This document shows positions 3,135 through 30,821 of a stretch of 49,719 nucleotides of DNA, piece by piece. The stretch is from a virus, in IMG/VR virus record IMGVR_UViG_3300023174_000240, positions 1 to 49,719 of that record. One strand, written 5' to 3'. Within the stretch, counting starts at the first letter, position 1. The number at the start of each line of letters is the position of its first letter. The position numbers and the translations under genes are program-made. The notes under the pieces were generated by a model that was not told the origin of the DNA, did not search any database, and worked only from the letters and a program-made list of their open reading frames with translations.

Positions 3135-3269
3135 GTTAAAAAACAAAAAGGGGTATAGGGGTTGTATGCTCTAATTCTGGAAGTTATCATTAAAAAAATA
3201 AAAACAAATATAAAAGATATACTTATAAAAAAATATTTTATTAACATTATGTAAAATCTTAAATCTTAG

Positions 3270-8714: not shown

Positions 8715-8951
8715 ATGGCTAAAATTAATAAAGCCGATTTAAATAAGGACGGAAAAGTAACAATGACAGAACAAATCTTAGCAGCGCTTGGAACATATGC
8801 TCGTGCATTTCTTTCAGCAGCAATTGCTTTGTACATGACTGGAAATACAAGTCCAAGAGACCTTCTAATGGGTGGATTCGCAGCAGTAGCACCAGTTATT
8901 CTTAAGGCTCTAAGCCCAACAAACAAAGAGTTTGGGTTTACAAACAAGTAA
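8715..8951 (+). CDS. Small membrane protein with EF-hand-like loop, putative holin
   Basis: 78 residues. The N-terminus carries DLNKDGKVTMTE (residues 8-19), which matches a canonical EF-hand/dockerin calcium loop with D, N, D, T and final E at positions 1, 3, 5, 9 and 12. Two hydrophobic segments follow (about 30-42 and 51-64) and a polar C-terminus. Size, two spans and isolation before a strong terminator fit a holin. The lysis enzyme is elsewhere (4983-5534). GAGGAG lies 8 bases before the ATG. Calcium binding and holin function are inferred. Confidence 0.6.
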   Translation: MAKINKADLNKDGKVTMTEQILAALGTYARAFLSAAIALYMTGNTSPRDLLMGGFAAVAPVILKALSPTNKEFGFTNK

Positions 8952-8974
8952 TTTAATAGTTACAGTTAGGATAG

Positions 8975-9004
8975 CTCCTGTGCTAAAATAAGCATAGGAG
9001 TTTT
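8975..9004 (+). terminator. Rho-independent terminator after the putative holin
   Basis: CTCCTGTGCT (8975-8984) pairs along all ten positions, with one G-U, to AGCATAGGAG (8991-9000), followed by TTTTCC. The loop strand contains TGCTAAAAT, an extended -10-like sequence, so a promoter for the 9026 gene may be superimposed. Confidence 0.75.
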
Positions 9005-9025
9005 CCTATTTAGGAGTACTAGCAA

Positions 9026-9373
9026 ATGGCAGGACAAAAGAATTTCGAAGTGGATCAAAATGCCACTTTTTCATTTATTGTTGAATATAAAGACAATGAT
9101 GGATTACCTATTGACTTAACAGGTTCATCAGCAAAGTTGCAAGTCCGTGATACAAAGGGCGGAAGCAAATTAGCATTTAGCCTAACATCTCCAGCAGGTG
9201 GAATTACAATAACCCCATTGCTTGGTAAACTTACAATAAAAATGACTCCTACTCAAACAAATAAACTATTTTATCCAAAATCATCATACGATATTATGGT
9301 ATCAGATAGTAATGGAAATAAAATTAAATTGCTAGAAGGATTTTTAACTCTTAGCAGATCGGTAACAATCTAA
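9026..9373 (+). CDS. BppU-like baseplate/fibre-base Ig-fold protein
   Basis: 115 residues. The pattern FEVDQNATFSFIVEYKDNDG, then PIDLTGSSAKLQVRDTKGG and a C-terminal strand ending LLEGFLTLSRSVTI resembles the N-terminal domain of phage baseplate upper proteins (BppU), an immunoglobulin-like fold that anchors fibres. It opens the adhesion locus directly after a terminator and overlaps the next gene as TAATG. Assignment is from sequence pattern. Confidence 0.65.
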   Translation: MAGQKNFEVDQNATFSFIVEYKDNDGLPIDLTGSSAKLQVRDTKGGSKLAFSLTSPAGGITITPLLGKLTIKMTPTQTNKLFYPKSSYDIMVSDSNGNKIKLLEGFLTLSRSVTI

Positions 9374-9810
9374 TGACAGAGACAATTGTTGTAACAGTAC
9401 CAAATAATGAGGTAGTTGTTTCCACCCCTGGCCCTCAAGGCCCAAGAGGTAAAACAATATTAAATGGTAATGGAGTTCCTGCAGAAAATTTGGGGCTTGA
9501 AGGAGATTTTTATTACGATAAGTTAACAACAAGATTTTATGGTCCAAAACCAACAGATTTAACATGGGTTGGAGCAACTAACTATCTTTTAAGCACAAGT
9601 ACTTTAACATACTCATTTTCAATTGGGCAGGTCGTAAATCAAGGATCATATTGGTTTATTGAAATACCGCATAATATGGGGTATAACCCAAATGTAACTG
9701 TTAAGAACAGTGCTGGAGATATATTAGAAACAGGAATAGATTATAATAGTATTAACAAAATAACACTGACAATGGCTCAACCATTCGGTGGGACAGCTTA
9801 CCTGTCATAA
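9373..9810 (+). CDS. Fibre protein with short collagen-like linker
   Basis: 145 residues. A short N-terminal strand (TETIVVTVPNNEVVVSTPG) leads into GPQGPRG, a brief collagen-like triplet run, then a domain with GDFYYDKLTTRFYGP and a C-terminal half (SFSIGQVVNQGSYWFIEIPH) like phage tip domains with the HNMGY-PNVTV-SAGD pattern. A related HGLGNQYVHAQV tip ends the next protein. It is probably a small trimeric fibre or connector between the BppU-like base and the long fibre. Confidence 0.7.
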   Translation: MTETIVVTVPNNEVVVSTPGPQGPRGKTILNGNGVPAENLGLEGDFYYDKLTTRFYGPKPTDLTWVGATNYLLSTSTLTYSFSIGQVVNQGSYWFIEIPHNMGYNPNVTVKNSAGDILETGIDYNSINKITLTMAQPFGGTAYLS

Positions 9811-13110: not shown

Positions 13111-13443
13111 ATGGCAACAATATTAAATCAGTTTAAAACGGTAACAGCAGTTTTAACAACTAGTAATGTAAGTTTATATACTCCACCAACAGGTTATACT
13201 GGAGTTATTCTTATGGCTCAAGTAGCTAATATTACTTCCACCGCCAGTTCTGTTGATATGTCTTTTTATGATGGCACATCTTATACATCTTTATTAAAAG
13301 GATATTCAGTTCCAGGAAATGATGCAACATCTGCAACAGTTGGAAAACTTGTAATAGAATATGGTAAATCACTTTATGGACAAGCAGCAGCAAATAGCAC
13401 CCTTCATGTTACTCTAAGCATCTTGGAAACTTTTAATGGCTAA
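13111..13443 (+). CDS. Small beta-sandwich virion protein
   Basis: 110 residues. The pattern ATILNQFKTVTAVLTTSNVS, YTPPTGYTGVILMAQVANIT and SVDMSFYDGTSYTSLLKGY is an all-beta fold. The protein at 23057-23407 has the same layout (intersubunit Ala/Thr/Ser-rich strands, VTLTIQFGG, SGLTLILPG). Both are probably paralogous decoration or fibre-tip proteins. The end overlaps the next ATG by eight bases. Confidence 0.65.
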   Translation: MATILNQFKTVTAVLTTSNVSLYTPPTGYTGVILMAQVANITSTASSVDMSFYDGTSYTSLLKGYSVPGNDATSATVGKLVIEYGKSLYGQAAANSTLHVTLSILETFNG

Positions 13444-14731
13444 AAATTTATCTGGTAGAGTAAAGAAAACACCACCTACTGGAGTATCTGCAGATAGATA
13501 TAATTATATTGGTTTATCTGAAGTAGAGCCAGACTTAGGTGTACCTTCAACCACAAACCAAGTATTAACCTCGTCTGTGCAGGGTATACGTTCTTGGGTG
13601 GCAGCCACTGCTTTACAGGGTACTGGTGGATCTGCAGGCATTCAAGGTCTTACTGGAATTCAAGGCATTCAAGGAACGGTAGGTGCAAGTGGTGTTTCTT
13701 CTAGCTACTTTAATTACAGAATTGATACTAACTCCACAGCTAATACTGACCCTGGTGCAGGTAATTTAAGATATAACAATGTTACTCAAACAAGTGCTAC
13801 AGCTTTATACATAGACTATTTAACACAAGACAATATTGATATTGATATGTTTTTAGCGCTTTTACAAGTTAATGATAAACTTTTTATTCAAGATGCAAAT
13901 AACTCCGATAATGTGCAACAATTTAAAGTTAGTGGAGCTATTAATCCAGGCAATAATACTTATGTTCAAGTTCCAGTAACATATGTTACATCAAGTGGCA
14001 CAGGTACCACTAATTTTGCAAATAACCACCCAGTTATTTTAGTTACTACTGCTGCAGGAATACAGGGAACTACTGGATCTCAGGGCGTCACTGGTACTCA
14101 AGGAACAGCTGGTACACAAGGATTAACTGGAAATCAAGGAACTGTTGGCACAACAGGTACACAAGGTTTGCAGGGAAGCCAAGGTACAACGGGAACTCAA
14201 GGAACAACGGGACTACAAGGATTACAAGGCATTCAAGGAATTACAGGAAGATATACTCTTTCTGCAAATGCTCCCTCTTCACCTGTAGTTGGAGATGCTT
14301 GGGTAGACACAGATGATGGTCGCACTTATATTTATGATGCTACTGGATGGTTTGAGCCGTACGATAATTTAATTGGTTTGCAGGGAACTCAAGGAATACA
14401 AGGTACTTTTGGGCCAGCTACAGTTCCTTTGAATTCACAGACATCCTCTTACACTCTTGCAGCAAGTGATAATGGAAAACTTATATCAATAACAACAGGC
14501 GGTGTAACAGTTCCAGTAAATATATTTAGCACAGGAAATAATATTGTTATTTATAACAACTCAACAAGTAGCCAAACTATTACTCAAGGAACCAACACAA
14601 CTCTTAGATTATCTGGCACTGCTTCTACAGGAAATAGAACTTTATCTCAATATGGAATTGCTACAGTTATATGCGTTGATGCTACTAATAACGCAAATGT
14701 ATTTACTATTTCTGGGGCGGGGTTGAGTTAA
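13436..14731 (+). CDS. Collagen-like fibre shaft with conserved C-terminal domain, module 1
   Basis: 431 residues. An N-terminal cap (RYNYIGLSEVEPDLGVPSTT) is followed by Gly-x-Gln/Thr triplets (IQGLTGIQGIQG), a beta insertion near 80-205, a second triplet run, the APSSPVVGDAWVDTDDGRTY domain, and a C-terminal domain with SDNGKLISITTGGVTVP. That last domain recurs in the proteins at 15452 and 21164 and probably trimerises or caps the shaft. The gene end shares a 38-base identical block with 16649-16686. The next gene encodes a separate LamG head. Confidence 0.85.
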   Translation: MAKNLSGRVKKTPPTGVSADRYNYIGLSEVEPDLGVPSTTNQVLTSSVQGIRSWVAATALQGTGGSAGIQGLTGIQGIQGTVGASGVSSSYFNYRIDTNSTANTDPGAGNLRYNNVTQTSATALYIDYLTQDNIDIDMFLALLQVNDKLFIQDANNSDNVQQFKVSGAINPGNNTYVQVPVTYVTSSGTGTTNFANNHPVILVTTAAGIQGTTGSQGVTGTQGTAGTQGLTGNQGTVGTTGTQGLQGSQGTTGTQGTTGLQGLQGIQGITGRYTLSANAPSSPVVGDAWVDTDDGRTYIYDATGWFEPYDNLIGLQGTQGIQGTFGPATVPLNSQTSSYTLAASDNGKLISITTGGVTVPVNIFSTGNNIVIYNNSTSSQTITQGTNTTLRLSGTASTGNRTLSQYGIATVICVDATNNANVFTISGAGLS

Positions 14732-14736
14732 TATGG
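14699..14736 (+). repeat. 38-base block identical to 16649-16686 at a fibre-gene junction
   Basis: The last codons of the collagen-like gene, its stop, and the first bases of the following head gene are identical to the same junction at 16649-16686. The genes that follow are unrelated (LamG versus PA14). This fits recombination exchanging the head gene behind a conserved shaft end. Confidence 0.8.
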
Positions 14737-15452
14737 TACTTGCATCTGCTACTACAGGATATGGAGTTGGATCCATAATTAGAGATTCAAGTTTAATTAC
14801 TTACTATGATCCATCATTAGTACAGTCATATTCTGGAAGCGGAACTACATACACAGATTTAAGCGGTAATTCTAATACTGGAACATTGCAAAATTCACCT
14901 ACTTTTAACACTACTAACTTCTCATTTAATGGAACAAACCAGTATATAAGTACTACAAATAGCTTTACAAACCCAAATGTTTATACAACTTGTTTATGGT
15001 TTAAGACTACTTCAAATGCTGGCCGTATTTTATTTGAATTTGAAAACACACAAACTGGAACAGGATCAACAAATCTTTCAAGCAGAAAAATGTGGGTGGG
15101 AACAGATAATACTCTGTACATTGCAATATATGATGGCTCATCTGTTAGATATGTGCAAACAGGTTATTCAGTAATAGATAATGTATGGAGATATGCTTCT
15201 GCTCATTATAATGGTACAGATTTAAGCCTTTATGTAAATGGTGGTTTAGTAAATACTTATAGTAGTATAGGAACAGCATATCCAACTACTGGATGGTGGA
15301 GAATTGCTGCTTATAAAGGAACTGGTTGGCCTGCTCATAGTGATGGTTATTTTACTGGTAGTATTGGACCAATTCAAATTTATAATAAATCACTTAGTGC
15401 TGCTGAAATTTTACAAAATTTTAATGCTCAAAGAGGAAGGTTTGGTGTCTAA
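14733..15452 (+). CDS. LamG/concanavalin A-like lectin head, module 1
   Basis: 239 residues. YYDPSLVQSYSGSGTTYTDL followed by SGNSNTGTLQNSP and FSFNGTNQYIS is the entry of the LamG jelly-roll, with the later strands LYVNGGLVNTY and the C-terminal GPIQIYNKSLSAAEILQNFN. This fold binds carbohydrate in phages. A close paralogue is at 21820. It starts one base after the stop of the shaft gene and its stop overlaps the next start as TAATG. Likely a receptor-binding tip supplied by a gene separate from its shaft. Confidence 0.85.
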   Translation: MVLASATTGYGVGSIIRDSSLITYYDPSLVQSYSGSGTTYTDLSGNSNTGTLQNSPTFNTTNFSFNGTNQYISTTNSFTNPNVYTTCLWFKTTSNAGRILFEFENTQTGTGSTNLSSRKMWVGTDNTLYIAIYDGSSVRYVQTGYSVIDNVWRYASAHYNGTDLSLYVNGGLVNTYSSIGTAYPTTGWWRIAAYKGTGWPAHSDGYFTGSIGPIQIYNKSLSAAEILQNFNAQRGRFGV

Positions 15453-16681
15453 TGCCTCTTAGTTTTCCCACCACTGGTTTAGTTACTAACGTAACTACTT
15501 ATAGCTTTTCAGGTCGTACTTGGCTTTGGAACGGTTCTTCTTGGCAATCTGTAGGTACAGTACAAGGCGTAGCTGGACCTCAAGGTATACAAGGAATACA
15601 AGGAGCAGTAGCCTCACAAGGAACGGTAGGTCTTCAAGGAACTCAAGGAACTATTGGGTCTCAAGGTACTGTAGGCATTCAAGGTAATACTGGTATACAA
15701 GGAAATACTGGACCTCAAGGTACAACTGGATCTCAAGGAATTATTGGTATTCAAGGATTAACAGGAATTCAAGGTACAACTGGCGCTGGTACCCAAGGAA
15801 CTCAAGGTGTTCAAGGTATAACAGGAGTTGGAACTCAAGGAACTCAAGGTATTACTGGTACTGGTATTCAAGGTTCTGCAGGTAGTGGAAGTCAAGGTAC
15901 TACAGGAACTCAAGGAAATACAGGAATTCAGGGTCCACTTGGTTTGCAGGGAACTCAAGGAATACAAGGTTTAAAAATAGGATTTGTTTATGATTCTTCT
16001 GCACCTTCTTCTCCAGCAATTGGTGATATTTGGGTGGATTCAACAGATGGAGTTAAATATCAATATATTAATGATGGAAATTCTTCACAATGGGTTGAGC
16101 TAGATTCAATTGGTTATGCAGGAGCTCAAGGTTTAATTGGTTTTCAAGGAATTACTGGACTACAAGGATCTTCAGGAACTAATGGAACTAATGGAACTAA
16201 TGGAAGTCAAGGTACTACAGGAACTCAAGGTACAACTGGAACCCAAGGAACAATAGGATTGCAAGGCACAACAGGCTTACAAGGCACAACTGGAACTCAA
16301 GGAACAACAGGTTTACAAGGCACAACAGGGTTACAGGGAACAACAGGAACTCAGGGTTTGACGGGATCTCAAGGAGTAACAACTTTTCCAGTAGTAAATC
16401 AAACCACATCTTATGTATTGCAAGCAAGCGACAATTCAAGAATTGTTTCAATAACAACAGGAGGAGTAACTGTTCCTATAAGCGTATTTAGCGCTGGCGA
16501 TAGTATAGTTATTTTTAATAATTCATCCTCTTCACAAATTATTGCTCAAGGGTCTAGCGTTACTTTAAGATTTGCAGGCAGTGCAAATACAGGAAATAGA
16601 ACGCTTGCTGGATATGGAGTTGCAACTATACTTTGTGTTGCAACTGGAGTATTTACTATTTCTGGGGCGGGGTTGAGTTAA
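15452..16681 (+). CDS. Collagen-like fibre shaft, module 2
   Basis: 409 residues. The N-terminal cap (PLSFPTTGLVTNVTTYSFSG, then RTWLWNGSSWQSVG) is shared with the proteins at 17320 and 22568 and probably attaches to the tail. Long Gly-x-Gln-Gly-Thr triplet runs follow, interrupted by APSSPAIGDIWVDSTDGVKY. The C-terminal domain has SDNSRIVSITTGGVTVP, as in 13436 and 21164. Triplet register is regular with no frameshift. Expected to be a trimeric collagen-like stalk. Confidence 0.88.
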   Translation: MPLSFPTTGLVTNVTTYSFSGRTWLWNGSSWQSVGTVQGVAGPQGIQGIQGAVASQGTVGLQGTQGTIGSQGTVGIQGNTGIQGNTGPQGTTGSQGIIGIQGLTGIQGTTGAGTQGTQGVQGITGVGTQGTQGITGTGIQGSAGSGSQGTTGTQGNTGIQGPLGLQGTQGIQGLKIGFVYDSSAPSSPAIGDIWVDSTDGVKYQYINDGNSSQWVELDSIGYAGAQGLIGFQGITGLQGSSGTNGTNGTNGSQGTTGTQGTTGTQGTIGLQGTTGLQGTTGTQGTTGLQGTTGLQGTTGTQGLTGSQGVTTFPVVNQTTSYVLQASDNSRIVSITTGGVTVPISVFSAGDSIVIFNNSSSSQIIAQGSSVTLRFAGSANTGNRTLAGYGVATILCVATGVFTISGAGLS

Positions 16682-16682
16682 T

Positions 16683-17291
16683 ATGGGTATAATGAATGCT
16701 TTTTCAGGTATTATGGTTCCACAAATATCATTTACACCAGGTTTAGCTGGTAAATTTTTTAATGGTGATTGGAGAGCCACAATATCAACTGGAAATATTG
16801 GTACTCTACCATTAACAACCGCAAATGATAGTAGTAACGTTACGTCAACAGCTAGTCTTCCTAGTTCTTCTTATGGATATGGATTAAATGTTTGGTCATC
16901 TATTTCATATAGTAGTTTAGGAGATTTATACGGGTTTATTGCAATAGGTTATTTTACCCCACCCACTACGGGAACATATAACTTTTATACATCATCTGAC
17001 GATGGAAGCGGTGTTTGGATAGGTTCTACAGCTAGTGATGCCTCTGGAAGAACTACGGCAAATGCTGTAGTAAATAATGGTTTGGGTGCAGGACAAGGAA
17101 ATATAAAAAGAAGCGGAAGTATATCTTTAGTAGGTGGGACACAATACGCTATAAGAATAGTCCATGAAGAAGGTAATGGCGGAGATAACTTAACTTTTAG
17201 TTGGGACGGGCCAGGAATTACTGAAACAACAAATTTAGCTCAATATTTTACTACTAAAACTTTAAATGGTATTGTAACAGGAGATTTTTAA
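16683..17291 (+). CDS. PA14-like carbohydrate-binding head, module 2
   Basis: 202 residues. GLAGKFFNGDWRATISTGNI near the start, then GFIAIGYFTPPTTGTYNFYT, SSDDGSGVWIGSTA and YAIRIVHEEGNGGDNLTFSW match the PA14/GLEYA beta-barrel, in which the DDG motif binds calcium and sugar. It follows the shaft stop by one base at the junction containing the 38-base repeat. Probably the receptor-binding head for the 15452 shaft. Confidence 0.85.
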   Translation: MGIMNAFSGIMVPQISFTPGLAGKFFNGDWRATISTGNIGTLPLTTANDSSNVTSTASLPSSSYGYGLNVWSSISYSSLGDLYGFIAIGYFTPPTTGTYNFYTSSDDGSGVWIGSTASDASGRTTANAVVNNGLGAGQGNIKRSGSISLVGGTQYAIRIVHEEGNGGDNLTFSWDGPGITETTNLAQYFTTKTLNGIVTGDF

Positions 17292-17319
17292 AATGAAATA
17301 TGAAACGGAAGTGATTTAA

Positions 17320-17799
17320 ATGCCAATTGATTTTCCCTCTACTGGATTAGTTTCAAATGTAACTACATATACATCTGGATCTAAAACATGGTTATGGACA
17401 GGATACTCTTGGAAAGCCGTTTTGTCTGGCACAGCCCAAGGAATTCAAGGTAATATAGGTCCGCAAGGTTTAAGTGGTTCATTTGCTGCACAAGGTATAC
17501 AAGGTCCTCAAGGAATTCAAGGAATTCAAGGTCTATTTGGACCTCAAGGCATAATTACTAGCGCTACCCCTCCATCATCTCAAAGTGTTTTATGGATGGA
17601 TACTACAGCTTCTGCTCAAACTGGATTGCAGGGAACTAGAGGTATTCAAGGAATTGCAGGTCCACAAGGAACACAACTTGGGGTTGCCACATATGTACAA
17701 ACTTCAGCACCTACAGGAATACAAGGTGGAACCCCATATGTATGGTGGCAAAAAATTGGGGCAAGTTCATATACTTTATGGATACATGATGGAACTTAA
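17320..17799 (+). CDS. Short collagen-like fibre protein
   Basis: 159 residues. N-terminal cap PIDFPSTGLVSNVTTYTSGS with KTWLWTGYSWKAV, close to those of 15452 and 22568; then short triplet runs (IQGPQGIQGIQG) around PPSSQSVLWMDTTASAQTG. It lacks the SDN...TTGGVTVP C-terminal domain and has no head gene behind it. It ends in YVWWQKIGASSYTLWIHDGT. It could be a reduced copy or a genuine short side fibre. Confidence 0.8.
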   Translation: MPIDFPSTGLVSNVTTYTSGSKTWLWTGYSWKAVLSGTAQGIQGNIGPQGLSGSFAAQGIQGPQGIQGIQGLFGPQGIITSATPPSSQSVLWMDTTASAQTGLQGTRGIQGIAGPQGTQLGVATYVQTSAPTGIQGGTPYVWWQKIGASSYTLWIHDGT

Positions 17800-17801
17800 T
17801 C

Positions 17802-17830
17802 TTGAACTATGTTAAAAGTAATGTTATAAT
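17802..17830 (+). promoter_or_regulatory. Promoter TTGAAC-N17-TATAAT inside the adhesion locus
   Basis: TTGAAC (17802-17807), 17 bases, perfect TATAAT (17825-17830) with TG at 17822-17823. It begins just after the 17320 gene and serves the gene at 17864, which has its own GGGGAG site. Confidence 0.7.
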
Positions 17831-17863
17831 GAAGTATAAAATATAAGCGGGGAGAATAGATAA

Positions 17864-18271
17864 ATGCCATTACAAAATGCTCTTGGTGATCTAGCTTTAG
17901 ATTCTACATTACAAACAACTAATACACGTCTTTCTGCGTTTCAACAAATTTTGCAGCCTTTGCAAAGAATTGCTCAACTATTAAAACCACTGGGAGTAGT
18001 TACAAACTCTACTAACAGACTTAACGTTGATATTAACACTATAACAACTTTGCCAACATTGGCTAACGTAACTACAGTAGGTACAGTATCATCAATTTCC
18101 GCTGGAACAATTACTACAGTTGGTACAGTTTCTAATATTTCTGCAGGAACATTAACAACACTTGGAACTTTAACCAACCAAACACAAATTGGAGCAGTAA
18201 ATGCTTTTGCTCAAATTCACGATATTAGTCGTCAAGGATATAATTCATCAATAAGGGGAAAAATAAGTTAA
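17864..18271 (+). CDS. Small repeat-rich virion protein
   Basis: 135 residues. A helical N-terminus (LDSTLQTTNTRLSAFQQILQ) is followed by short tandem repeats TVGTVSSISAGTITTVGTVS, each about ten residues, giving a small beta-solenoid or strand stack. The C-terminus HDISRQGYNSSIRGKIS is basic. It abuts the 958-residue gene (stop followed directly by ATG) and is likely its partner or adaptor. Confidence 0.7.
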   Translation: MPLQNALGDLALDSTLQTTNTRLSAFQQILQPLQRIAQLLKPLGVVTNSTNRLNVDINTITTLPTLANVTTVGTVSSISAGTITTVGTVSNISAGTLTTLGTLTNQTQIGAVNAFAQIHDISRQGYNSSIRGKIS

Positions 18272-21148
18272 ATGGCAAATACATTAGTTAATACATTAGA
18301 TCTACCATTTTGGGAATTATTAAGCCAAGCTCCCGCCTCATCATCTGCTCTATCTGCAATATCTACTATAGAAGATGGAACTGATCGTTTTATTTATTAC
18401 TATACTACTCAGACTTTATATCGTTATGATACATACAAGGATACTTGGCAACAGCTTGCTCTTTCTCCTGCTGCAGGTTCTACAGTAGTTGACATTAAGC
18501 ATACAAAACGCCGTGGTTTTCATGGACGTGTTATTTCAGCAACCTCCTCTACAGTAACTATTGGTGGCCTTCGCCTTCAAAACTTATCTGGCGAAACTAT
18601 AAGTATTGAATATGGCACAGGTCAGGGGCAGGAACGAACACTTACTTGGGTTAGCGATAACGTACTTGAATCAGGTGTTATTACTGGAACAGCTACAACA
18701 AACATTTCTGATTCTACAAAGAAGTGGCGTTTTAACCAGTGGGCTGGTTATACAGTAGGTATTACTTTTGGTACAGGAGCAACGCAATACCGCAGAGTTG
18801 TATATAATGATGCAACTACTTTATATGTTTCAGATAACAACCTTCTGCCACATGACCCTTGGGGTCAACAGGCCTTTGTAACAGCAGCTCCTTATGCACT
18901 TCCAGTAACTACTGCGGGTTCCCAAGCTAATTACACTATTTCTTCTCAAACATTTAGTGTTAATACAAACTGGACAACTACTCCAGATTCCACTTCATTT
19001 TTTACTACAAGAACTGGTGGAGTTTATTTAATTACATCTGCTGCATCAACGCCATTTTTTAACTTCTATTACTACGATATTGCTAATGATTTATGGACGC
19101 AAAAAACAACTCCGCAAGGTTTTATGGCAGATGCTTTATCAGCAGATGTGTCCCTAGAACGTACTGGACGAGTTTCGACCCCATATGTTACAAAAGTAGG
19201 TACTGTATCAGCAACTACTAGAACCCTAGCGGATTCAGGTATTTCTTTAACAGCAGACCGTTACGCAAACCATACTTTAACTATCACGGGCGGTACAGGT
19301 ATTGGTCAAAAGCGCCGTATTGTTGGCCATACCCCAACTACTTTCTATGTAACTCCTGTGTGGGATACAACACCAGATTCAACATCAACGTATGAAGTAA
19401 CACCAAACATAGATAAACTATGGGCAATTATTCCATCAACAACAGTTTACAAAGGTGCAGGTATTCTTCAATATGATGCTGTTACTGATAACTGGGCAAA
19501 CGCAGAAATATTTGACCAAGGAGTTGCAGCTAATATAACTGCAAAACTTAGCAATTGGACACCTGTAGGTGTTACATCTATTACAAGAATTGCAGCAGGA
19601 GTTACTGCTGTTGCATCTACTCCAGTAGCAGCAGGAACCAACTATGTTATTGGAGATATTTTAACTTTATCTACTGGCGGAGCTGGTGCTCAGGTGATTG
19701 TTACAAACGTATCTGCTACTGGTGCTATTACGGCAGTTTCTCTAATTAACTCAGGAAGCACTACTGGTTATACAGTATCAACCTCTGCAACTACTGGTGG
19801 TACAGGAACATCTGCAACAATTAGTATTACTGCAGTTGGCCCAACAGCTAACGTAGTAACCGCTTCTAACCATTTCTTTAAGTCTGGTGACTCTATAACA
19901 TTTGCTGGGTGTGCAACAGATACATCTTTTAACGCAGCATTTACACTAATTGGGCCGTATGCAGTTAACGCATTTAGTATATCGGCACCTTCAAGCTCAG
20001 CATCTCCAACAGCTGCTGCATCTCAAGGAACAACAACGCTTGTAGATCCAAGTAAGGCTTGGACTACAAATGAACATGTTGGTCGTATAGTTACAATTGC
20101 AGTATCTGGTATTAACCCAACAACTCAGGTTTCTTGGATTACTGCTAATACTGGAACCACACTAACTTTAGCAAGCACAATTACTGCACCAGTTAACGGT
20201 ACTTCTAAATATGTTATTGCTGATGCAAAGTTATTTGGTACAGATGATCAAAGTAAAACTTTTGGTAAAGAAAATGATGGTTGGGCTACTGGTGGGTCTA
20301 CCACTACTTTAGTAGACTCAACTAAGTCTTGGGATAAAGGACAGTGGGTTGGGTACTACTTTAAAGTTGAAGCGGGAACTGGTTATGGTTCTGGTCGCAT
20401 TGCTATTACTGCAAATGATGCAACTACCCTAACATTTGCTACACAAACATTTACTCCAGATGCAACAACAAAATACGAAATTGCAGACTCATGGGGTCTT
20501 GTAACAACGGGTACATCTACCTCTTTATTTACTGATACTGCACACGCTTGGCCTGTTAACTTATACGCTGGAAAACGTATTCAATTTACTTCTAACGCTA
20601 ACTTAGGTTATCAAGTACAGATTACCTCTAATACGGCAACTACTATTACTTTAACAACGGCATTGGCGGCAATCCCTACAGCAAACTTAGCTGCTTATTG
20701 TATTCTTGGCATACCTGCCCGTGGTGCAGGAACCTCACTTATTTGGAACTGGGGTTCAACTGATACTACTAAGACAGGACGTTATTTCTACTCTGTTCGT
20801 GGTGGTGCTACAACGGGACAAATTGATATCTATGATATTTCTTCTGGCAAGTGGATTATTGCTCCTCATATTCGTGGCCTTTCTGAACTTTGGACTACAG
20901 GCTCTTCACACGCATACGATGGTGCAGATACTATCTACCTAACTCGTACTGCATCAGGTGCTGTTGTTCGTGTGTTTGCTTATAATATAAACACACAACA
21001 GTTACAAGGTATTGGTACAACCACAATGCTTAGTGGTACCCCATCAACTGGAAACCTTATGGAAGTAATTAAAGACGCTTCTGGAAACAAATTCTTATAC
21101 ATACTACAGGAAACTGGAACTCAACTAACTAGAGCTTTAGTTTGGTAA
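18272..21148 (+). CDS. Large repeat-containing virion protein
   Basis: 958 residues with no signal or membrane span. The body has at least five copies of a repeat of about 50 residues, for example TNISDSTKKWRFNQWAGYTV, TTLVDSTKSWDKGQWVGYYF and TSLFTDTAHAWPVNLYAGKR, each followed by GTG...R.I..N..TTL. Between them are aromatic blade-like strands (FFNFYYYDIANDLWTQK, LWAIIPSTTVYKG) that recall Kelch-type propellers. The repeats suggest an elongated tail appendage or baseplate wheel protein. It uses more G/C-ending codons than the fibre genes, which may indicate high expression. Confidence 0.75.
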   Translation: MANTLVNTLDLPFWELLSQAPASSSALSAISTIEDGTDRFIYYYTTQTLYRYDTYKDTWQQLALSPAAGSTVVDIKHTKRRGFHGRVISATSSTVTIGGLRLQNLSGETISIEYGTGQGQERTLTWVSDNVLESGVITGTATTNISDSTKKWRFNQWAGYTVGITFGTGATQYRRVVYNDATTLYVSDNNLLPHDPWGQQAFVTAAPYALPVTTAGSQANYTISSQTFSVNTNWTTTPDSTSFFTTRTGGVYLITSAASTPFFNFYYYDIANDLWTQKTTPQGFMADALSADVSLERTGRVSTPYVTKVGTVSATTRTLADSGISLTADRYANHTLTITGGTGIGQKRRIVGHTPTTFYVTPVWDTTPDSTSTYEVTPNIDKLWAIIPSTTVYKGAGILQYDAVTDNWANAEIFDQGVAANITAKLSNWTPVGVTSITRIAAGVTAVASTPVAAGTNYVIGDILTLSTGGAGAQVIVTNVSATGAITAVSLINSGSTTGYTVSTSATTGGTGTSATISITAVGPTANVVTASNHFFKSGDSITFAGCATDTSFNAAFTLIGPYAVNAFSISAPSSSASPTAAASQGTTTLVDPSKAWTTNEHVGRIVTIAVSGINPTTQVSWITANTGTTLTLASTITAPVNGTSKYVIADAKLFGTDDQSKTFGKENDGWATGGSTTTLVDSTKSWDKGQWVGYYFKVEAGTGYGSGRIAITANDATTLTFATQTFTPDATTKYEIADSWGLVTTGTSTSLFTDTAHAWPVNLYAGKRIQFTSNANLGYQVQITSNTATTITLTTALAAIPTANLAAYCILGIPARGAGTSLIWNWGSTDTTKTGRYFYSVRGGATTGQIDIYDISSGKWIIAPHIRGLSELWTTGSSHAYDGADTIYLTRTASGAVVRVFAYNINTQQLQGIGTTTMLSGTPSTGNLMEVIKDASGNKFLYILQETGTQLTRALVW

Positions 21149-21163
21149 TAGGTAAGGTAAATA

Positions 21164-21820
21164 ATGCCACAACTTAAGTACTATGATACAAATAGCAATT
21201 CTTGGCTACCTGTTTTAGCAGGAGCACAAGGAGTAGTTGGTATACAAGGAAATAAATATAATGCAGCTTTAAATTCTACTCCACCATCTTCTCCAGTTTC
21301 TGGAGATGTTTGGTTTGATTTAGAATCTGGACGTATGGCAGTTTGGAATGGCACTCAATGGTTTGAACCATATTCTAATTTAAATGGAGCGCAAGGCACT
21401 ACAGGTCTTCAAGGTATTCTAGGAGCACAGGGTATTCAAGGTATACCTGGTTCTTTTGCTGCCCAAGGTATTCAAGGCCCTGTTGGCTCACAAGGAGTTC
21501 AAGGTTCTTTAGGGCAAATAAGTTTTCCAGTAATAACTCAAGCTTCTTCTTATATATTACAAGCTAGCGATAATGGAAAAGTTATTTCAATTTTAACGGG
21601 TGGTGTTACAGTTCCATCAAGCGTTTTTAATCCTGGTGATAATATAGTTATTTTTAATAACTCAACAATTACACAAAATATTACTCAAGGTACAGGAGTT
21701 ACTCTTAGGTTGCCTTCAACTACAACTACAGGAACTAGAACATTATCTTCGTATGGTCTTGCAACTATATTATGTGTAGATGTTGGAATATTTACTGTTT
21801 CTGGTCCAGGAGTAGTATAG
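21164..21820 (+). CDS. Collagen-like fibre shaft, module 3
   Basis: 218 residues. A short cap (PQLKYYDTNSNSWLPVLAGA), a triplet run, the domain PPSSPVSGDVWFDLESGRMA, a second triplet run (IQGPVGSQGVQG), and the C-terminal domain SDNGKVISILTGGVTVP shared with 13436 and 15452. It is a compact version of the longer shafts. Its TAG overlaps the GTG start of the LamG head by one base. Confidence 0.85.
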   Translation: MPQLKYYDTNSNSWLPVLAGAQGVVGIQGNKYNAALNSTPPSSPVSGDVWFDLESGRMAVWNGTQWFEPYSNLNGAQGTTGLQGILGAQGIQGIPGSFAAQGIQGPVGSQGVQGSLGQISFPVITQASSYILQASDNGKVISILTGGVTVPSSVFNPGDNIVIFNNSTITQNITQGTGVTLRLPSTTTTGTRTLSSYGLATILCVDVGIFTVSGPGVV

Positions 21821-22539
21821 TGGCATCATTATCTTCTTTTGCAGGTCTTACGGGTGATAAAATTCCAGGTGTAACAAATGGTTTATTAGTTTATTTAGAT
21901 GCTGGAATATCTTACCCAGGAGGACCATTTTGGTATGATTTAAGCGGTAATGCTAATAATGGAGCATTAACCGTTCCACCCACATATACCAGTACTGGTA
22001 ATGGTTATTTTACATTTAATGGCTCAACTACTGAAGTTACTCTTTCAACTAACTATCCCTCAGTAGTTAACAATTTTTCAGCAGAAGTTTGGTGTCTCCC
22101 ATCAGCAGCTTTATCACTTCAAACTGAAAGTAATAGCGGTACCAATGGTATAGCAGCTGGTGGTACAGTTATTAATGACCAACAAGGACCTGATGGTGGT
22201 TTTGGATTAGCGGTTGGAACTAATGGAGTTCAAGTCCTTGAGCACGCTGGAAGTTATTTGCCCCCTATTTTAGTTGCTCCATTAACAATAACTTCATTAA
22301 CACAAATTGTAATTGTTTATACTAATAAACAGCCTTCATTATACATAAATGGTGTTCTTACAAGAACTGGTTTAACAAGTACAAGAACTAACGTAAATTT
22401 AAATGGAAGTAAAATTGGTTCAAGTCCATATACTTATTGGACGGGTAATCTTTACGCTTTAAAATATTATAATAGGTCTATTTCTGCATCAGAAGTTACA
22501 CAAAACTTTAACTCTTTAAGGACTCGTTATGGGGTATAA
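21820..22539 (+). CDS. LamG-like lectin head, module 3 (GTG start)
   Basis: The longer open frame to 21772 begins inside the shaft gene; the GTG at 21820 overlaps the shaft stop as TAGTG and gives 239 residues, exactly the length of the paralogue at 14733. The fold signature GLLVYLDAGISYPGGPFWYD with LSGNANNGAL and FTFNGSTTEV is clear, and the end YALKYYNRSISASEVTQNFN matches the paralogue's NKSLSAAEILQNFN. It is a predicted carbohydrate-binding tip. Confidence 0.85.
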   Translation: MASLSSFAGLTGDKIPGVTNGLLVYLDAGISYPGGPFWYDLSGNANNGALTVPPTYTSTGNGYFTFNGSTTEVTLSTNYPSVVNNFSAEVWCLPSAALSLQTESNSGTNGIAAGGTVINDQQGPDGGFGLAVGTNGVQVLEHAGSYLPPILVAPLTITSLTQIVIVYTNKQPSLYINGVLTRTGLTSTRTNVNLNGSKIGSSPYTYWTGNLYALKYYNRSISASEVTQNFNSLRTRYGV

Positions 22540-22567: not shown

Positions 22568-22873
22568 ATGCCTATTAGTTTTCCATCAAGCCCTTCCCTA
22601 AACCAACAATATACATCTGCTGGTCGCACATGGTTTTGGAATGGTTCTATTTGGCAATCATTAGGTACCTCTCAAGGTCTCCAAGGCACCCAAGGTTTAA
22701 GCGGTTCATTTGCTGGTCAGGGTATCCAAGGTACTACTGGGCTTCAGGGCGCTGTAGGAACTCAAGGCCTTAATGGATCTTTTGCTGCTCAAGGTATTCA
22801 AGGACCAGCGGGAATTGTAGTAGCAACATACGATTCAGATCAAGGTATATTATCTCAACAGGTATTTTCATAA
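22568..22873 (+). CDS. Short collagen-like fibre protein
   Basis: 101 residues. N-terminal cap PISFPSSPSLNQQYTSAGRT with WFWNGSIWQSLG, then Gly-x-Gln triplets (LQGTQGLSGSFAGQGIQG) and a short end. Like 17320 it lacks the large C-terminal domain and head gene. The codon before its ATG lies after GGGGTAAT, a weak ribosome site. Confidence 0.75.
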   Translation: MPISFPSSPSLNQQYTSAGRTWFWNGSIWQSLGTSQGLQGTQGLSGSFAGQGIQGTTGLQGAVGTQGLNGSFAAQGIQGPAGIVVATYDSDQGILSQQVFS

Positions 22874-23070: not shown

Positions 23071-23407
23071 CAAAGTAGGATTATCAGCAGCATCTACAGG
23101 AGTCCCTATTGCAGTTGCTGCAACTAGTACAGTAGGTACAGTTATTCATACAACTGGTACATCTGCTATTGATGAAATTTGGTTGTATGCAACAAATACA
23201 TCAACTTCTGCAGTTACCCTAACTATTCAATTTGGCGGAACAGGAATAATCAACCAAATTCAACAAATCATCCCCGCTAACTCTGGCCTTACTCTTATAC
23301 TCCCAGGTCTTATTTTAGCGCCAACAGGTGCAGCTTTACTTATCTATGCATATGCTAGCTCTGCTTCGGTAGTAAACGTTTCAGGTTACGTCAACAGGAT
23401 TATTTAA
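23057..23407 (+). CDS. Small beta-sandwich virion protein, paralogue of 13111
   Basis: 116 residues, begins MATYSKVGLSAASTGVPIAV and includes STSAVTLTIQFGGTG and NSGLTLILPGLILAPTG, all beta. The length, Thr/Ala/Ser composition and strand layout parallel the 13111 protein. It precedes the glycine-rich gene array as 13111 precedes the first shaft, overlapping the next ATG as TAATG. Probably an adaptor or decoration protein. Confidence 0.65.
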   Translation: MATYSKVGLSAASTGVPIAVAATSTVGTVIHTTGTSAIDEIWLYATNTSTSAVTLTIQFGGTGIINQIQQIIPANSGLTLILPGLILAPTGAALLIYAYASSASVVNVSGYVNRII

Positions 23408-24303
23408 TGGCTAACCCGATTCGCAGAGGCGAGTCTGGCTCGCAAGTAAATAGTTGGGCACAAAATGACACTGTAACACCTACTGCTCAAACATCTTTCA
23501 TACTTCCACACGGCTTAACACTCAGACACACAATTAACGCAGGAACAACATCTGTAACTATTCCTGCTGGCATTACTTGGGTTTATGCAATTTGTGTAGG
23601 AGCAGGTGGTGGTTCTAATGGTTATGGCGGTGGTGGAGCAGGCGGTGTTGCTTGGGGTTGGACTTTAGCAAATAGTGCTTGTGTAGTTGGAGTAGGTTCA
23701 GGTGGTGCAAATGGTGGCTATACAAGATACGGCCACATTATTGCTGGTGGCGGTGGAAACGGCCAAGGAGGTGCGGGAACTTTAGGCGGCGGCGGCGGCG
23801 CTAATGCTTCGGGTGCAACTAATTATTGGGGTATGCCAGGCGGTGCAGCAGGAAGTGGAAGCATTGACGGTCGCATTGGTGCAGGCGCTGGCGGTGGACA
23901 GTACAATGTAGGAGCAACAACCATTAGTAACGGCGGCAATGGCATTTCAGGTGGTGGCGGTGGTTATTCAAATGTTCTTGGAACTACTGGAAAAGTTGGT
24001 GGTTCAGGTTTAGTTGGTGGTGGCGGTGGTGGTGGCCCAAGCAACACAGGAACTGGTGCTGCTGGTGGCAATGGAATTGGCATAAATGGAGTTATTTATA
24101 CAGGTGGCGCAGGTGGATCAGGAACTGCCTCAACAGGCGGTTCTGGTGGTGGCGGTGCTGGTATTGCAGGTAACGGTTCTAATGCAATTGGAAACATCGC
24201 TGGGAACGGTGGCCTTGGTGGTGGTGGTGGTGGTGGCCCTGGTTCAGGAACTGGCGGTACAAATGGCACTGGCGGCGACGGAATACTTTACATTTTTTAC
24301 TGA
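23407..24303 (+). CDS. Glycine-rich adhesin-like fibre tip, type A copy 1
   Basis: 298 residues. A base (NPIRRGESGSQVNSWAQNDT) and a beta domain ending in the conserved VTIPAGITWVYAICVGAGGG are followed by very long glycine runs with small inserts (GYTRYGHIIAGGGGNGQGG), ending GDGILYIFY. Such glycine lattices resemble the polyglycine type II helix bundles in the gp38 adhesins of T-even-like phages, where variable inserts between runs contact the receptor. Type A copy 2 is at 25162. No frameshift. Confidence 0.8.
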   Translation: MANPIRRGESGSQVNSWAQNDTVTPTAQTSFILPHGLTLRHTINAGTTSVTIPAGITWVYAICVGAGGGSNGYGGGGAGGVAWGWTLANSACVVGVGSGGANGGYTRYGHIIAGGGGNGQGGAGTLGGGGGANASGATNYWGMPGGAAGSGSIDGRIGAGAGGGQYNVGATTISNGGNGISGGGGGYSNVLGTTGKVGGSGLVGGGGGGGPSNTGTGAAGGNGIGINGVIYTGGAGGSGTASTGGSGGGGAGIAGNGSNAIGNIAGNGGLGGGGGGGPGSGTGGTNGTGGDGILYIFY

Positions 24304-24311
24304 GGAGAACA

Positions 24312-25151
24312 ATGAGCTTAACTATCTATGACAATTCATCTTACAGTGATACCCCTTTGGGATTAAAACTGCAACAAGTTTTTGCCACCCCTGGAACATT
24401 TCCAGTTATACTGCCTCCAGGTATTCAAAGAGTTTACGCAGTTGTTATTGGTGGGGGTGGAGCAGGAAGCACATTAACCACAGGAGGCGGAGGCGGAGGT
24501 GGTGCAGGTGGATTTTCTACTGGTTGGACGTTTGCTACTAATACTGTGACCGTTGGTGCAGGTGGTACAGGTACAACAACTACTGGTAGTGCTGCAAATG
24601 GTTCTTTAAGTTTTTACGGAATGGTCTTTGCTGGCGGTGGCAGTGGTGGAATAAATGATATTTATGGCGGAGCTGCAGCTGGAGTAAAAAATGTTATCAA
24701 CAGCCAAACATCAACAGTTTCTTATACAGGCGCACCTGCGGCTGCTGCAAACACAATTGGTTATGCAGGAGGTGGTGGCTATTTTGCAGCTGGTTCTGAT
24801 GGTATTTCATCAGGCGGTGGAGCAGGTTCGGCAACAACAACAGGATCAGTTACTGCATTTGCTGGTGGAAGAGGTTTGATAACAGGTGGAGGCGGAGCAG
24901 CAGGTACAACAGGTACAGGCACTGGTGGTGCTGGTGGTACTGGTGATTTATATACAGGTGGAATAGGTTCAAGCGGTACTGGAACAAATTTTGGTGGCGG
25001 AGGAGGCGGTGCTGGATATTTTAGTATAGGTTCAAATGCATCAGGTAATACAGGTGGTGCAGGTGGTTTAGGCGGTGGCGGTGGAGGTGCTGGCTCTACT
25101 TTAGGTCGTGGTGGAGACGGTGGCAACGGAGCAGTTTTAATTTACTACTAA
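24312..25151 (+). CDS. Glycine-rich adhesin-like fibre tip, type B copy 1
   Basis: 279 residues. The first about 50 residues (YDNSSYSDTPLGLKLQQVFA then TPGTFPVILPPGIQRVYAVV) are nearly identical to those of 26082, then glycine-rich runs with inserts (GYAGGGGYFAAGSDG) and the end GGNGAVLIYY. Starts eight bases after type A copy 1 with GAGGAG. Glycine-run boundaries suggest the same polyglycine helical bundle as type A, but the base domain differs, so the two types may form different tips. Confidence 0.8.
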   Translation: MSLTIYDNSSYSDTPLGLKLQQVFATPGTFPVILPPGIQRVYAVVIGGGGAGSTLTTGGGGGGGAGGFSTGWTFATNTVTVGAGGTGTTTTGSAANGSLSFYGMVFAGGGSGGINDIYGGAAAGVKNVINSQTSTVSYTGAPAAAANTIGYAGGGGYFAAGSDGISSGGGAGSATTTGSVTAFAGGRGLITGGGGAAGTTGTGTGGAGGTGDLYTGGIGSSGTGTNFGGGGGGAGYFSIGSNASGNTGGAGGLGGGGGGAGSTLGRGGDGGNGAVLIYY

Positions 25152-28337: not shown

Positions 28338-28878
28338 AGATTTAGTTATTGAACTTTCTGTTGACCCATTTAATCCTGAGTTAAATTTTAAATGTGCTAT
28401 TGAGTATCAGAATATTAATCAAACAGCTTCTGCCGTTTCTTTTTATTTAAGAGCGGCAGAATATGGTGTAGATACACATCCTGATATTGCTTACACATCT
28501 TTACTACTTATGGCTAATTGTTTTGCAGATCAAAATGATAGAGTTAATACAGTTACTAATTGCATACTTCAAGCAATAGCGCATATTCCACAACGTCCAG
28601 AAGCATATTTTCTTATGTCACAATTTTATGAACGCCAAGCATCTTGGCAAGAATGTTACACATGGGCTGAAATTGGATTGTCTATGTCTGAATATGATCC
28701 TCTTCCAGCAGATGTGGGGTATAATGGTAGATATGTTCTTGAATTTGAAAAATCAGTAAGTGCATGGTGGATCGGAAGAAAAGAAGAAGCAGTATCTATT
28801 TTAAATGATTTAAATAATAAAGATATGTCTGAAGAATATAAAAATGCTGTGAGGTTTAATCTTGAACGTATTATTTGA
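28327..28878 (+). CDS. TPR-like helical repeat protein
   Basis: 184 residues from the ATG at 28327 with AGAGG 9 bases before; an upstream in-frame start at 28309 lacks a site. Helical pairs with TPR spacing: LNFKCAIEYQNINQTASAVS, FYLRAAEYG, AYTSLLLMANCFADQNDRVN and EAYFLMSQFYERQASWQECY. It overlaps the genes on both sides by 11 and 17 bases. Proteins of this type accompany glycosyltransferases in surface-glycan loci; a scaffold for the flanking enzymes is plausible. Confidence 0.75.
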   Translation: MKIEDLVIELSVDPFNPELNFKCAIEYQNINQTASAVSFYLRAAEYGVDTHPDIAYTSLLLMANCFADQNDRVNTVTNCILQAIAHIPQRPEAYFLMSQFYERQASWQECYTWAEIGLSMSEYDPLPADVGYNGRYVLEFEKSVSAWWIGRKEEAVSILNDLNNKDMSEEYKNAVRFNLERII

Positions 28879-29603: not shown

Positions 29604-30821
29604 ATGAGCAATAGTACAGCTAAAAATTTTAGATATCCAACTCTTGATATGTCACCAGATATCCCAAGGGATATGGGTTTACTTGCTCAAGATATTGATA
29701 CTTATTTAAGTACACATTTTGGTCCCACAGGTCCTACTGGACCACAAGGAACTCAAGGAACAGTAGGGGCACAAGGACTAACGGGCATACAAGGTTTTGT
29801 AGGCATCCAAGGTGTAGCTGGACCACAAGGAACTCAAGGAACAGTAGGGGCACAAGGACTAACGGGCATACAAGGTTTTGTAGGCATCCAAGGTGTAGCT
29901 GGACCACAAGGAACTCAAGGCACAACAGGAACACAAGGTACAACAGGAACTCAAGGAGCAAACGGGCTACAAGGTTTGCAGGGTTTGGTAGGTTCTGGTT
30001 TAAATATTTTAGGTTCATATAATACATTAGCTGAATTGCAATCAGCTCGCCCTACTGGTACACCAGGAGAAGCCTATTTGGTTTCTGGAAATCTTTATGT
30101 GTGGGGTGGATCATCCTGGATTAATGCAGGAAATATTCAAGGTACAGCAGGAGCTCAAGGTACAAGAGGGTTACAAGGTACAACAGGTTTACAAGGTACA
30201 ACAGGAACTCAAGGCACAACAGGAACACAAGGTACAACAGGAACTCAAGGCACTAACGGGCTACAAGGCTTGCAAGGGTTTCAAGGGTTAGGTTATGAGG
30301 GTGTAACTTCAACAACTACATTAACACTTACATTTACTAGTCAAACTTTTACAGTTAATAAAATTGGTGCTTTTGTAGTAGGTCAAAGAATTCGCATTGC
30401 TTATACGCCTTCGCCTTCATATACATGGCTTGAAGGTAGCATAACAGCAATAAACACATCAACGCCATCCATAACTATTGGATCTCCTGATCTTATTTTT
30501 GGTGCTGGTGCAACTCAAAGTTCTTGGACCATTTCAGTTGCTGGCTATCAAGGATTTGGTGGTAGTTCAGGAGCTCAAGGAACAACAGGAACTCAAGGAA
30601 CAGTAGGAGCACAAGGTACAACAGGAACTCAAGGCACAAATGGGCTGCAAGGTACAAATGGGCTGCAAGGCTTACAAGGATTACAAGGAATTCAAGGTTC
30701 AACAACTATTTCAACTGTTTATCAAAATGGAATGACAACAACAGCAAATAGAATTTTTTATAATACTACAGGCACACCACCAACAGGCACGGCGGCAGGA
30801 GACTTGTACATTCAGTACTAA
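29604..30821 (+). CDS. Collagen-like fibre shaft, module 4
   Basis: 405 residues. A distinct cap (NSTAKNFRYPTLDMSPDIPR, DMGLLAQDIDTYLS) leads into GPTGPTGPQG and long Gly-x-Gln runs. A first insert (LGSYNTLAELQSARPTGTPG, with YVWGGSSWINAG) and a second beta insert with VTSTTTLTLTFTSQTFTVNK interrupt the collagen. The C-terminus is YQNGMTTTANRIFYNTTGTP, a small tip. The cap resembles fibres in other phages that sit at the distal tail. An 81-base tandem duplication lies in the first run. Confidence 0.85.
   Translation: MSNSTAKNFRYPTLDMSPDIPRDMGLLAQDIDTYLSTHFGPTGPTGPQGTQGTVGAQGLTGIQGFVGIQGVAGPQGTQGTVGAQGLTGIQGFVGIQGVAGPQGTQGTTGTQGTTGTQGANGLQGLQGLVGSGLNILGSYNTLAELQSARPTGTPGEAYLVSGNLYVWGGSSWINAGNIQGTAGAQGTRGLQGTTGLQGTTGTQGTTGTQGTTGTQGTNGLQGLQGFQGLGYEGVTSTTTLTLTFTSQTFTVNKIGAFVVGQRIRIAYTPSPSYTWLEGSITAINTSTPSITIGSPDLIFGAGATQSSWTISVAGYQGFGGSSGAQGTTGTQGTVGAQGTTGTQGTNGLQGTNGLQGLQGLQGIQGSTTISTVYQNGMTTTANRIFYNTTGTPPTGTAAGDLYIQY
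29739..29920 (+). repeat. 81-base tandem duplication within the collagen-like run
   Basis: The sequence from 29739 recurs exactly from 29820, period 81 bases (27 codons, nine triplets), and its first 20 bases again at 29901. Both full copies look identical. The exact identity, including third codon positions, means a recent duplication or gene conversion that lengthens the shaft. Confidence 0.85.

What the first reader, a model, noticed from the sequence alone, without database searches (positions are those of the whole stretch)
13436..22539. Shaft and head on separate genes: modular collagen-plus-lectin fibres
Three collagen-like shafts share a C-terminal SDN...ITTGGVTVP domain, and each is followed within one base or less by a separate head gene: LamG (14733), PA14 (16683), LamG (21820). 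Two short shafts (17320, 22568) have the same N-terminal cap but no head. This looks like a plug-in system in which heads are swapped as genes, and the C-terminal shaft domain is the socket.
Basis: partly seen in the sequence, partly recalled or inferred. Interest (0 to 1): 0.68.

Follow-up and report, generated by a model that had tools for sequence, protein, structure and literature searches.

The report
Plug-and-socket swappable phage fibre tips
Three fibre genes of this uncultured phage end in the same ~100-residue "socket", and each is followed at once by a separate gene for a different tip; across phages, tips of unrelated shape begin with the same short leader peptide, so phages seem to swap host-recognition tips behind a shared plug.

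Summary
Three collagen-like shafts (13436-14731, 15452-16681, 21164-21820) end in a shared ~98-aa domain, and each is followed at +1, +1 or -1 bp by a separate head gene (LamG, PA14/GLEYA, LamG). It holds far beyond this window. Among 170 distinct copies of the domain from viral contigs, phage records and one bacterial genome, 168 end within 3 aa of the stop codon, the next gene starts at -4 to +3 in 164 of 167, and none is fused to a head.

Heads with unrelated bodies (glycine-rich, LamG, PA14, beta-propeller, fn3, Gp38-like) share an uncharged ~10-12-residue N-terminal leader, roughly M[ST][IG]xQ[LM]LLGG. Where sockets are >=80% identical but heads are unrelated, identity stays near 55% over head residues 2-10, then falls to background. 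A close relative keeps the PA14 cassette's socket and first ten head codons but carries a LamG body.

Best explanation: a trimeric socket at the fibre end binds the plug of a swappable adhesin. It works like gp37/gp38 of T2/S16-type phages but uses a different socket fold and plug. Contact is inferred, not shown.

The parts
13436..14731 (+). shaft 1: collagen-like fibre protein, 431 aa, C-terminal socket
   Evidence: Collagen Pfam 1.6e-12
14423..14728 (+). socket domain of shaft 1
   Evidence: family has no Pfam match over cut-off and no PDB sequence match
14733..15452 (+). head 1: LamG/ConA-like lectin-fold protein, 239 aa
   Evidence: PF13385 8.9e-20; model body is a beta-sandwich matching lectin/LamG-fold domains
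14733..14768 (+). putative plug of head 1 (MVLASATTGYGV); residues 1-16 unstructured in model (pLDDT below 50); among the weaker matches to the plug motif
15452..16681 (+). shaft 2: collagen-like, 409 aa, N-cap plus C-terminal socket
   Evidence: Collagen 1.2e-28
16382..16678 (+). socket domain of shaft 2 (modelled, pLDDT 96.7, XD1/gp9-like fold)
16683..17291 (+). head 2: PA14/GLEYA adhesin-type protein, 202 aa
   Evidence: PF07691 6.2e-14, PF10528 2.9e-14
16683..16718 (+). putative plug of head 2 (MGIMNAFSGIMV)
   Evidence: the DNA match to relative L249 extends through the first 10 codons
16714..17307 (+). head body exchanged relative to close relative L249 (PA14 here, LamG there); DNA similarity stops at 16713 and resumes at 17308
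21164..21820 (+). shaft 3: collagen-like, 218 aa, C-terminal socket
   Evidence: Collagen 1.1e-7
21521..21817 (+). socket domain of shaft 3
21820..22539 (+). head 3: LamG protein, 239 aa, GTG start overlapping the shaft stop (TAGTG)
21820..21855 (+). putative plug of head 3 (MASLSSFAGLTG)
14699..14736 (+). 38-nt socket-end/junction/head-start sequence, identical to 16649-16686
   Evidence: repeat D4
16649..16686 (+). second copy of the identical 38-nt junction
   Evidence: repeat D4
17320..17799 (+). short shaft, same N-cap as shaft 2, no socket, next gene 64 bp away (internal control)
22568..22873 (+). short shaft, N-cap, no socket, next ORF about 20 bp away (internal control)
29604..30821 (+). 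third socketless collagen protein; following gene at +6 has no plug (internal control)

Best explanation
Each pair encodes a two-part receptor-binding fibre. The shaft gene makes a (presumably trimeric) collagen-like fibre that ends in an XD1/gp9-like beta-sandwich socket. The next gene, probably translated by stop-start coupling from the same message, makes a head whose first ~10-12 uncharged residues form a plug that binds the socket; the rest of the head (LamG, PA14, glycine-rich and so on) meets the cell surface. Because the plug stays with the socket and only the body behind it is exchanged, recombination just inside the head gene gives a fibre a new tip without disturbing assembly. Shown: conserved gene architecture, conserved leader on unrelated bodies, body swaps with a breakpoint after the leader, socket at the end of a T7-type tail fibre in isolates. 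Inferred: physical binding, trimer, stoichiometry, coupling, receptor binding by heads.
For: Of 170 distinct socket copies, 168 end within 3 aa of the stop; the next gene starts at -4..+3 in 164 of 167, most often -1 (124); there are no socket-head fusions (Fisher vs background p = 3e-37). Leave-one-head-cluster-out motif test: 61 of 67 distinct head N-termini score above at least 99% of background N-termini. A motif trained only on glycine-rich heads recognises non-glycine-rich heads with AUC 0.95 at residues 3-10, falling to ~0.66-0.70 from residue 13 on (0.56-0.79 at later offsets, composition effect). No unrelated gene start among ~1450 reaches the lower quartile of heads. In 160 locus pairs with sockets >=80% identical and unrelated heads, identity is ~55% at head residues 2-10 and ~10% beyond residue 13. 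Close relative L249: 77.5% DNA identity over socket + junction + first 10 codons, then a LamG body in place of PA14, with similarity resuming after the head. In Limnohabitans and Sphaerotilus T7-like phages the socket ends a tail fibre with the Phage_T7_tail N-terminus, and the downstream head matches 'tail fiber protein; host specificity'. Two relatives' heads match the Gp38 adhesin family over its cut-off. Socket fold resembles T4 gp9 and CBA120 TSP4 XD1, a trimeric module in those proteins (PMC8825819). Plug region unstructured in the isolated head model.
Against: No complex could be modelled. Plug-socket covariation is above a permutation null on average (0.280 vs 0.213) but no residue pair exceeds it, so shared ancestry explains it as well. 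XD1 modules are described as possible spacers, not docking sites (PMC8825819). Exceptions: a socket followed by a short holin-like ORF (L233), one followed by a terminator-like hairpin and no head (L039), a 687-aa head without the plug (L078/L250), a tandem socket (L224). The window's own head 1 plug is one of the weaker matches. Where these shafts sit on the window's virion is not known.
Confidence: 0.74

Rival explanations
1. The downstream gene encodes a fibre-folding chaperone (like T4 gp38, Mu Tfa or Pam3 gp25) that binds the shaft C-terminus through its N-terminus during trimerisation and is then released.
For: Chaperones of this kind bind the fibre's distal end (PMC9608196). 14 of 83 heads match phrog_863 'tail fiber assembly'.
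Against: Bodies are LamG, PA14, beta-propeller, fn3, glycine-rich and Gp38-adhesin folds, which fit surface binding rather than chaperoning. A chaperone's body should follow its client, but bodies change while the socket stays. The conserved part is only ~12 residues.
Confidence: 0.1
2. The shared leader is only homology carried along in recombination or translation-initiation context, with no binding role; heads are independent virion or secreted proteins coupled to the shaft for expression only.
For: Exchange points lie next to a conserved DNA stretch (38-nt identity in the window); overlapping stop-start sites are common in these genomes.
Against: The leader is conserved as amino acids between sockets of 40-50% identity in podo-, sipho- and myovirus relatives, where DNA homology is largely gone. 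Other gene starts in the same loci lack it. Socket-less shafts have no such partner.
Confidence: 0.1
3. The fibres decorate the capsid or neck rather than the tail and help attachment to particles or biofilm rather than specific receptor recognition.
For: Some best PHROG matches are 'head and packaging: virion structural protein'; the best PDB fold match of the socket is a deposited 'capsid spike'; S-CBS2 has an annotated head decoration gene just upstream.
Against: T7-type tail-fibre N-terminus on the socket protein in two isolates; shaft PHROG hits are mostly tail fibre. The docking mechanism would be the same on either site.
Confidence: 0.06

Closest known systems
gp37-gp38 long tail fibre tip of T2/S16/PP01-type phages
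   Same: Trimeric fibre with a separately encoded adhesin at its tip, attached through the adhesin's N-terminus; glycine-rich adhesins vary for host range; N-terminus must match gp37 (PMC6851490; PMC12892980). Two relatives' heads pass the Gp38 Pfam cut-off.
   Different: gp38 attaches by an alpha-helical domain with three conserved tryptophans; here the leader is ~12 residues and 0 of 165 heads have a Trp in residues 1-15. Socket is an XD1-like beta-sandwich, not the gp37 beta-helix. Head bodies span many folds.
CBA120 TSP4 / T4 gp10 / T4 gp9 XD modules
   Same: Socket model matches TSP4 (7rej), T4 gp9 (1qex), CpaA and StcE domains, the same set listed for XD1 in PMC8825819; XD domains belong to trimeric attachment proteins.
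   Different: No sequence similarity detected. There the modules are N-terminal and XD2/XD3 recruit whole tailspike trimers; here the module is the last ~100 aa of the fibre and is paired with a short peptide.
Phage fibre chaperones (T4 gp38, Mu Tfa, Pam3 gp25)
   Same: Phage-encoded partner that acts on the fibre's distal end (PMC9608196).
   Different: Conserved chaperone body that assists folding; here bodies vary and look adhesive.
Single-gene LamG virion proteins (phrog_8510, phrog_24074)
   Same: Same LamG body as heads 1 and 3.
   Different: LamG is fused into one long protein rather than carried on a separate short gene.

Membership tests
gp37/gp38-type split fibre tip | separate adhesin gene directly downstream of the fibre gene | tested here: met
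   164 of 167 at -4..+3
gp37/gp38-type split fibre tip | adhesin with Gp38 Pfam domain | tested here: not met
   None of the three window heads; among 83 relatives' heads four hits, two over the cut-off
gp37/gp38-type split fibre tip | N-terminal attachment domain with conserved tryptophans | tested here: not met
   0 of 165 heads with Trp in residues 1-15; 2 with three or more Trp in residues 1-60
gp37/gp38-type split fibre tip | three shafts to one head | not testable with these tools
   needs complex structure or proteomics
XD1/gp9-like domain | fold | tested here: met
   pLDDT 96.7; Foldseek 7rej 2.3e-3, 1qex 1.1e-2, prob 0.98-1.00; TM-scores moderate, 0.44-0.64
XD1/gp9-like domain | detectable sequence homology | tested here: not met
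   no Pfam family over cut-off, no credible PDB sequence match
XD1/gp9-like domain | packs as a trimer | not testable with these tools
   single-chain prediction only
Laminin_G_3 (heads 1 and 3) | over curated Pfam cut-off | tested here: met
   71.8 and 36.3 bits vs 27.6
PA14 (head 2) | over curated Pfam cut-off | tested here: met
   52.5 vs 24 bits; GLEYA 53.6 vs 26.2
Tail-fibre chaperone (Tfa) | conserved chaperone domain in the downstream gene | tested here: not met
   no such Pfam among the 25 families listed for 83 heads; phrog_863 'tail fiber assembly' matches 14 heads, several of them glycine-rich

The most novel reading that the evidence does not exclude
A general plug-and-socket standard for receptor-binding tips is shared across unrelated tailed phages of fresh and marine water. 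One undescribed C-terminal socket domain and a ~10-12-residue N-terminal plug let adhesins of almost any fold be exchanged by recombination just behind the plug, always as a separate, translationally coupled gene and never as a fusion.
Probability: 0.6. Interest if true: 0.82.

Novelty: new variant of a known kind. Interest (0 to 1): 0.72.

Why it matters
If true, the last ~100 residues of a fibre gene and the first ~12 of the next identify receptor-binding tips in uncultured phages, most of which are now annotated as hypothetical. It would explain how tips of unrelated fold spread between phages with different tails, and it offers a small natural docking module for phage biology and protein engineering. 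It also makes a standing question testable: why some phages keep fibre and adhesin as separate genes.

Tried and rejected
Residue covariation between plug and socket: no pair above the permutation maximum. PDB sequence searches with the socket and with a glycine-rich head: no credible relatives. Programmed frameshift fusing shaft and head: rejected, because head 3 lies in a different frame from its shaft (-1) than heads 1 and 2 do (+1), the head frames of pairs 1 and 2 close at TGA nine bases before the head start, and spacing varies from -4 to +3 among relatives. Promoters or terminators inside the cassettes: no more than expected in shuffles. Tight spacing alone as evidence: rejected as too common. 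Paper searches for split collagen/lectin phage fibres: no description of this socket-leader pair found, though subscription papers are not held.
Full report
What is there. The window is a 49.7-kb IMG/VR phage fragment. Its portal protein is 58-59% identical to those of Streptomyces phages of the BillNye/StarPlatinum group, so an actinobacterial host is likely. Between a tail-fibre-like gene (11582) and the portal (34091) lies an array of collagen-like genes. Three of them (13436-14731, 15452-16681, 21164-21820) end in the same ~98-aa domain; those of shafts 1 and 3 are 64% and 61% identical to that of shaft 2. Each is followed by a separate gene at +1, +1 and -1 bp: LamG, PA14/GLEYA and LamG. 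Three other collagen genes (17320, 22568, 29604) lack the domain. Their next genes lie at +64, about +20 and +6 and lack the leader described below, so they act as internal controls.

Is it more than chance? Tight spacing alone is not, because 121 of 273 other adjacent gene pairs in the related loci are equally tight (genes called by a simple ORF rule, so approximate). The domain was therefore searched for elsewhere: four scans of viral contigs, one of bacterial genomes (one match) and the phage records (10 records). This gave 170 distinct copies. 168 end within 3 aa of the stop codon. The next gene starts at -4 (16), -1 (124), 0 (1), +1 (16), +2 (6) or +3 (1) in 164 of 167 cases (Fisher p = 3e-37 against the background; copies are related, so the p-value overstates independence). 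No socket is fused to a head in any open frame. The exceptions are a socket followed by a terminator-like hairpin (L039), one followed by a short holin-like ORF (L233), a gene with two tandem sockets (L224), a divergent socket with its head at +18 (L090), one at +7 (L149) and a head gene with a broken frame (L060).

The plug. Printing the heads side by side showed that heads with different bodies start alike: MSIQQLLVGG, MSIMQMMLAG, MTSVSMLLGS, MGIMNAFSGI and so on. Position by position: S/T at 2, I or G at 3, Q at 5, M/L at 6-8, G at 9-11, and almost no charged residues. Three tests support it. A motif built without a given head cluster still recognises that cluster: 61 of 67 distinct N-termini score above at least 99% of the N-termini of other tight genes. 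A motif built on glycine-rich heads recognises non-glycine-rich heads with AUC 0.95 at residues 3-10, and the signal falls to ~0.7 by residue 13. Among ~1450 other gene starts in the same loci none reaches the lower quartile of heads. In the isolated model of head 1 the first 16 residues are unstructured (pLDDT below 50) while the body folds as a LamG/lectin beta-sandwich.

Swapping. For 160 pairs of loci whose sockets are at least 80% identical but whose heads have no BLAST similarity, identity along the head is ~55% at residues 2-10 and drops to ~10% beyond residue 13 (the pairs are not independent). The clearest single case is L249, a close relative of the window (shaft 3 and head 3 87% identical, head 1 90%, the 18272 protein 92%). 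The window's shaft 2 socket, the junction and the first ten codons of the PA14 head align to L249 at 77.5% DNA identity (16385-16713). There the match stops: L249 has a LamG body, and similarity resumes at 17308, just before the next shaft's N-cap. L249 also has the shaft 2 N-cap joined directly, through collagen repeats, to the 17320 shaft's C-terminal part, so the whole socket-head cassette has moved within the array, plausibly through the collagen repeats. In the window the junctions of pairs 1 and 2 share 38 identical bases running from the socket end into the head start codon.

What the heads are. Among 83 non-redundant heads, Pfam finds a glycine-rich domain in 37, LamG in 7, beta-propeller (SBBP) repeats in 4, Gp38 adhesin in 4 (two over the curated cut-off), fn3 in 2, PA14/GLEYA in 1, and WD40, SPRY and others. 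In the T7-like phages of Limnohabitans and Sphaerotilus the socket is the C-terminus of a fibre with the Phage_T7_tail N-terminal domain, and the following gene matches a PHROG named 'tail fiber protein; host specificity'. That places the system on a tail fibre in at least those phages.

What the socket is. No Pfam family over its cut-off and no credible PDB sequence matches it. AlphaFold gives pLDDT 96.7. Foldseek's first PDB matches are a Pseudomonas phage capsid spike, a Klebsiella phage protein, CBA120 TSP4, a tailspike depolymerase and T4 gp9, then StcE and CpaA. TSP4, gp9, StcE and CpaA are the set reported for the trimeric XD1 domain of TSP4 (PMC8825819). In that paper XD2 and XD3, not XD1, are the docking domains, and XD1 is described as a possible spacer. 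The fold therefore supports a trimeric fibre module but does not prove docking.

Mechanism. Shown by sequence: the architecture, the conserved leader on unrelated bodies, the swaps behind it, and a tail-fibre context in isolates. Inferred: that the leader is a plug held by a trimeric socket, that the head is the adhesin, and that stop-start coupling sets its amount. The nearest precedent is the gp37 trimer-gp38 monomer of phage S16, where gp38's N-terminal domain sits on gp37 through three tryptophans (PMC6851490), and in T2 the gp38 N-terminus must match gp37 (PMC12892980). This system works like that one but is not a member: no tryptophans in the leader (0 of 165), a different socket fold, and many head folds. 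Covariation between plug and socket was inconclusive.

Verdict. Direct contact remains to be shown. Novelty: a new, widespread variant of the split fibre-tip principle.

Noticed in passing
L249 (reverse complement) 8841-9770 versus window 15452-17799: In the close relative one gene joins the shaft 2 N-cap, collagen repeats and the C-terminal part of the 17320 shaft; the window has a socket plus PA14 head inserted between them. Collagen repeats look like the recombination sites.
   Followed up: partly
window 28309-29527: A glycosyltransferase-like ORF (PHROG match) followed by a FkbM methyltransferase gene just before the fourth long collagen gene; could modify fibre proteins.
   Followed up: no
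window 31869-33686: A 605-aa protein with a LamG domain in its N-terminal half, not next to a socket shaft.
   Followed up: no
window 23407-25151: Two adjacent glycine-rich proteins resembling the commonest head type in relatives, but without plug or socket partner; similar copies in L249.
   Followed up: no
window 18272-21148: A 958-aa protein between pair 2 and pair 3 with no PHROG match and only a sub-threshold Kelch hit, yet 92% identical in L249.
   Followed up: no
L224, stop at 3249: One fibre gene with two tandem sockets, the first internal and the second C-terminal.
   Followed up: no
L233: A socket gene followed at -4 by a short holin-like ORF instead of a head.
   Followed up: no
L060 and L067, after 4312: A head gene starts normally (MTIPSILLG) but its frame is broken about 60 residues in; sequencing error or decaying gene.
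   Followed up: no
window 42964-49719: An open frame of at least 2252 aa running off the contig end looks like the tape-measure protein; it explains the apparent lack of closed ORFs there and implies a long-tailed phage. No tRNA or Rfam match in the window.
   Followed up: partly
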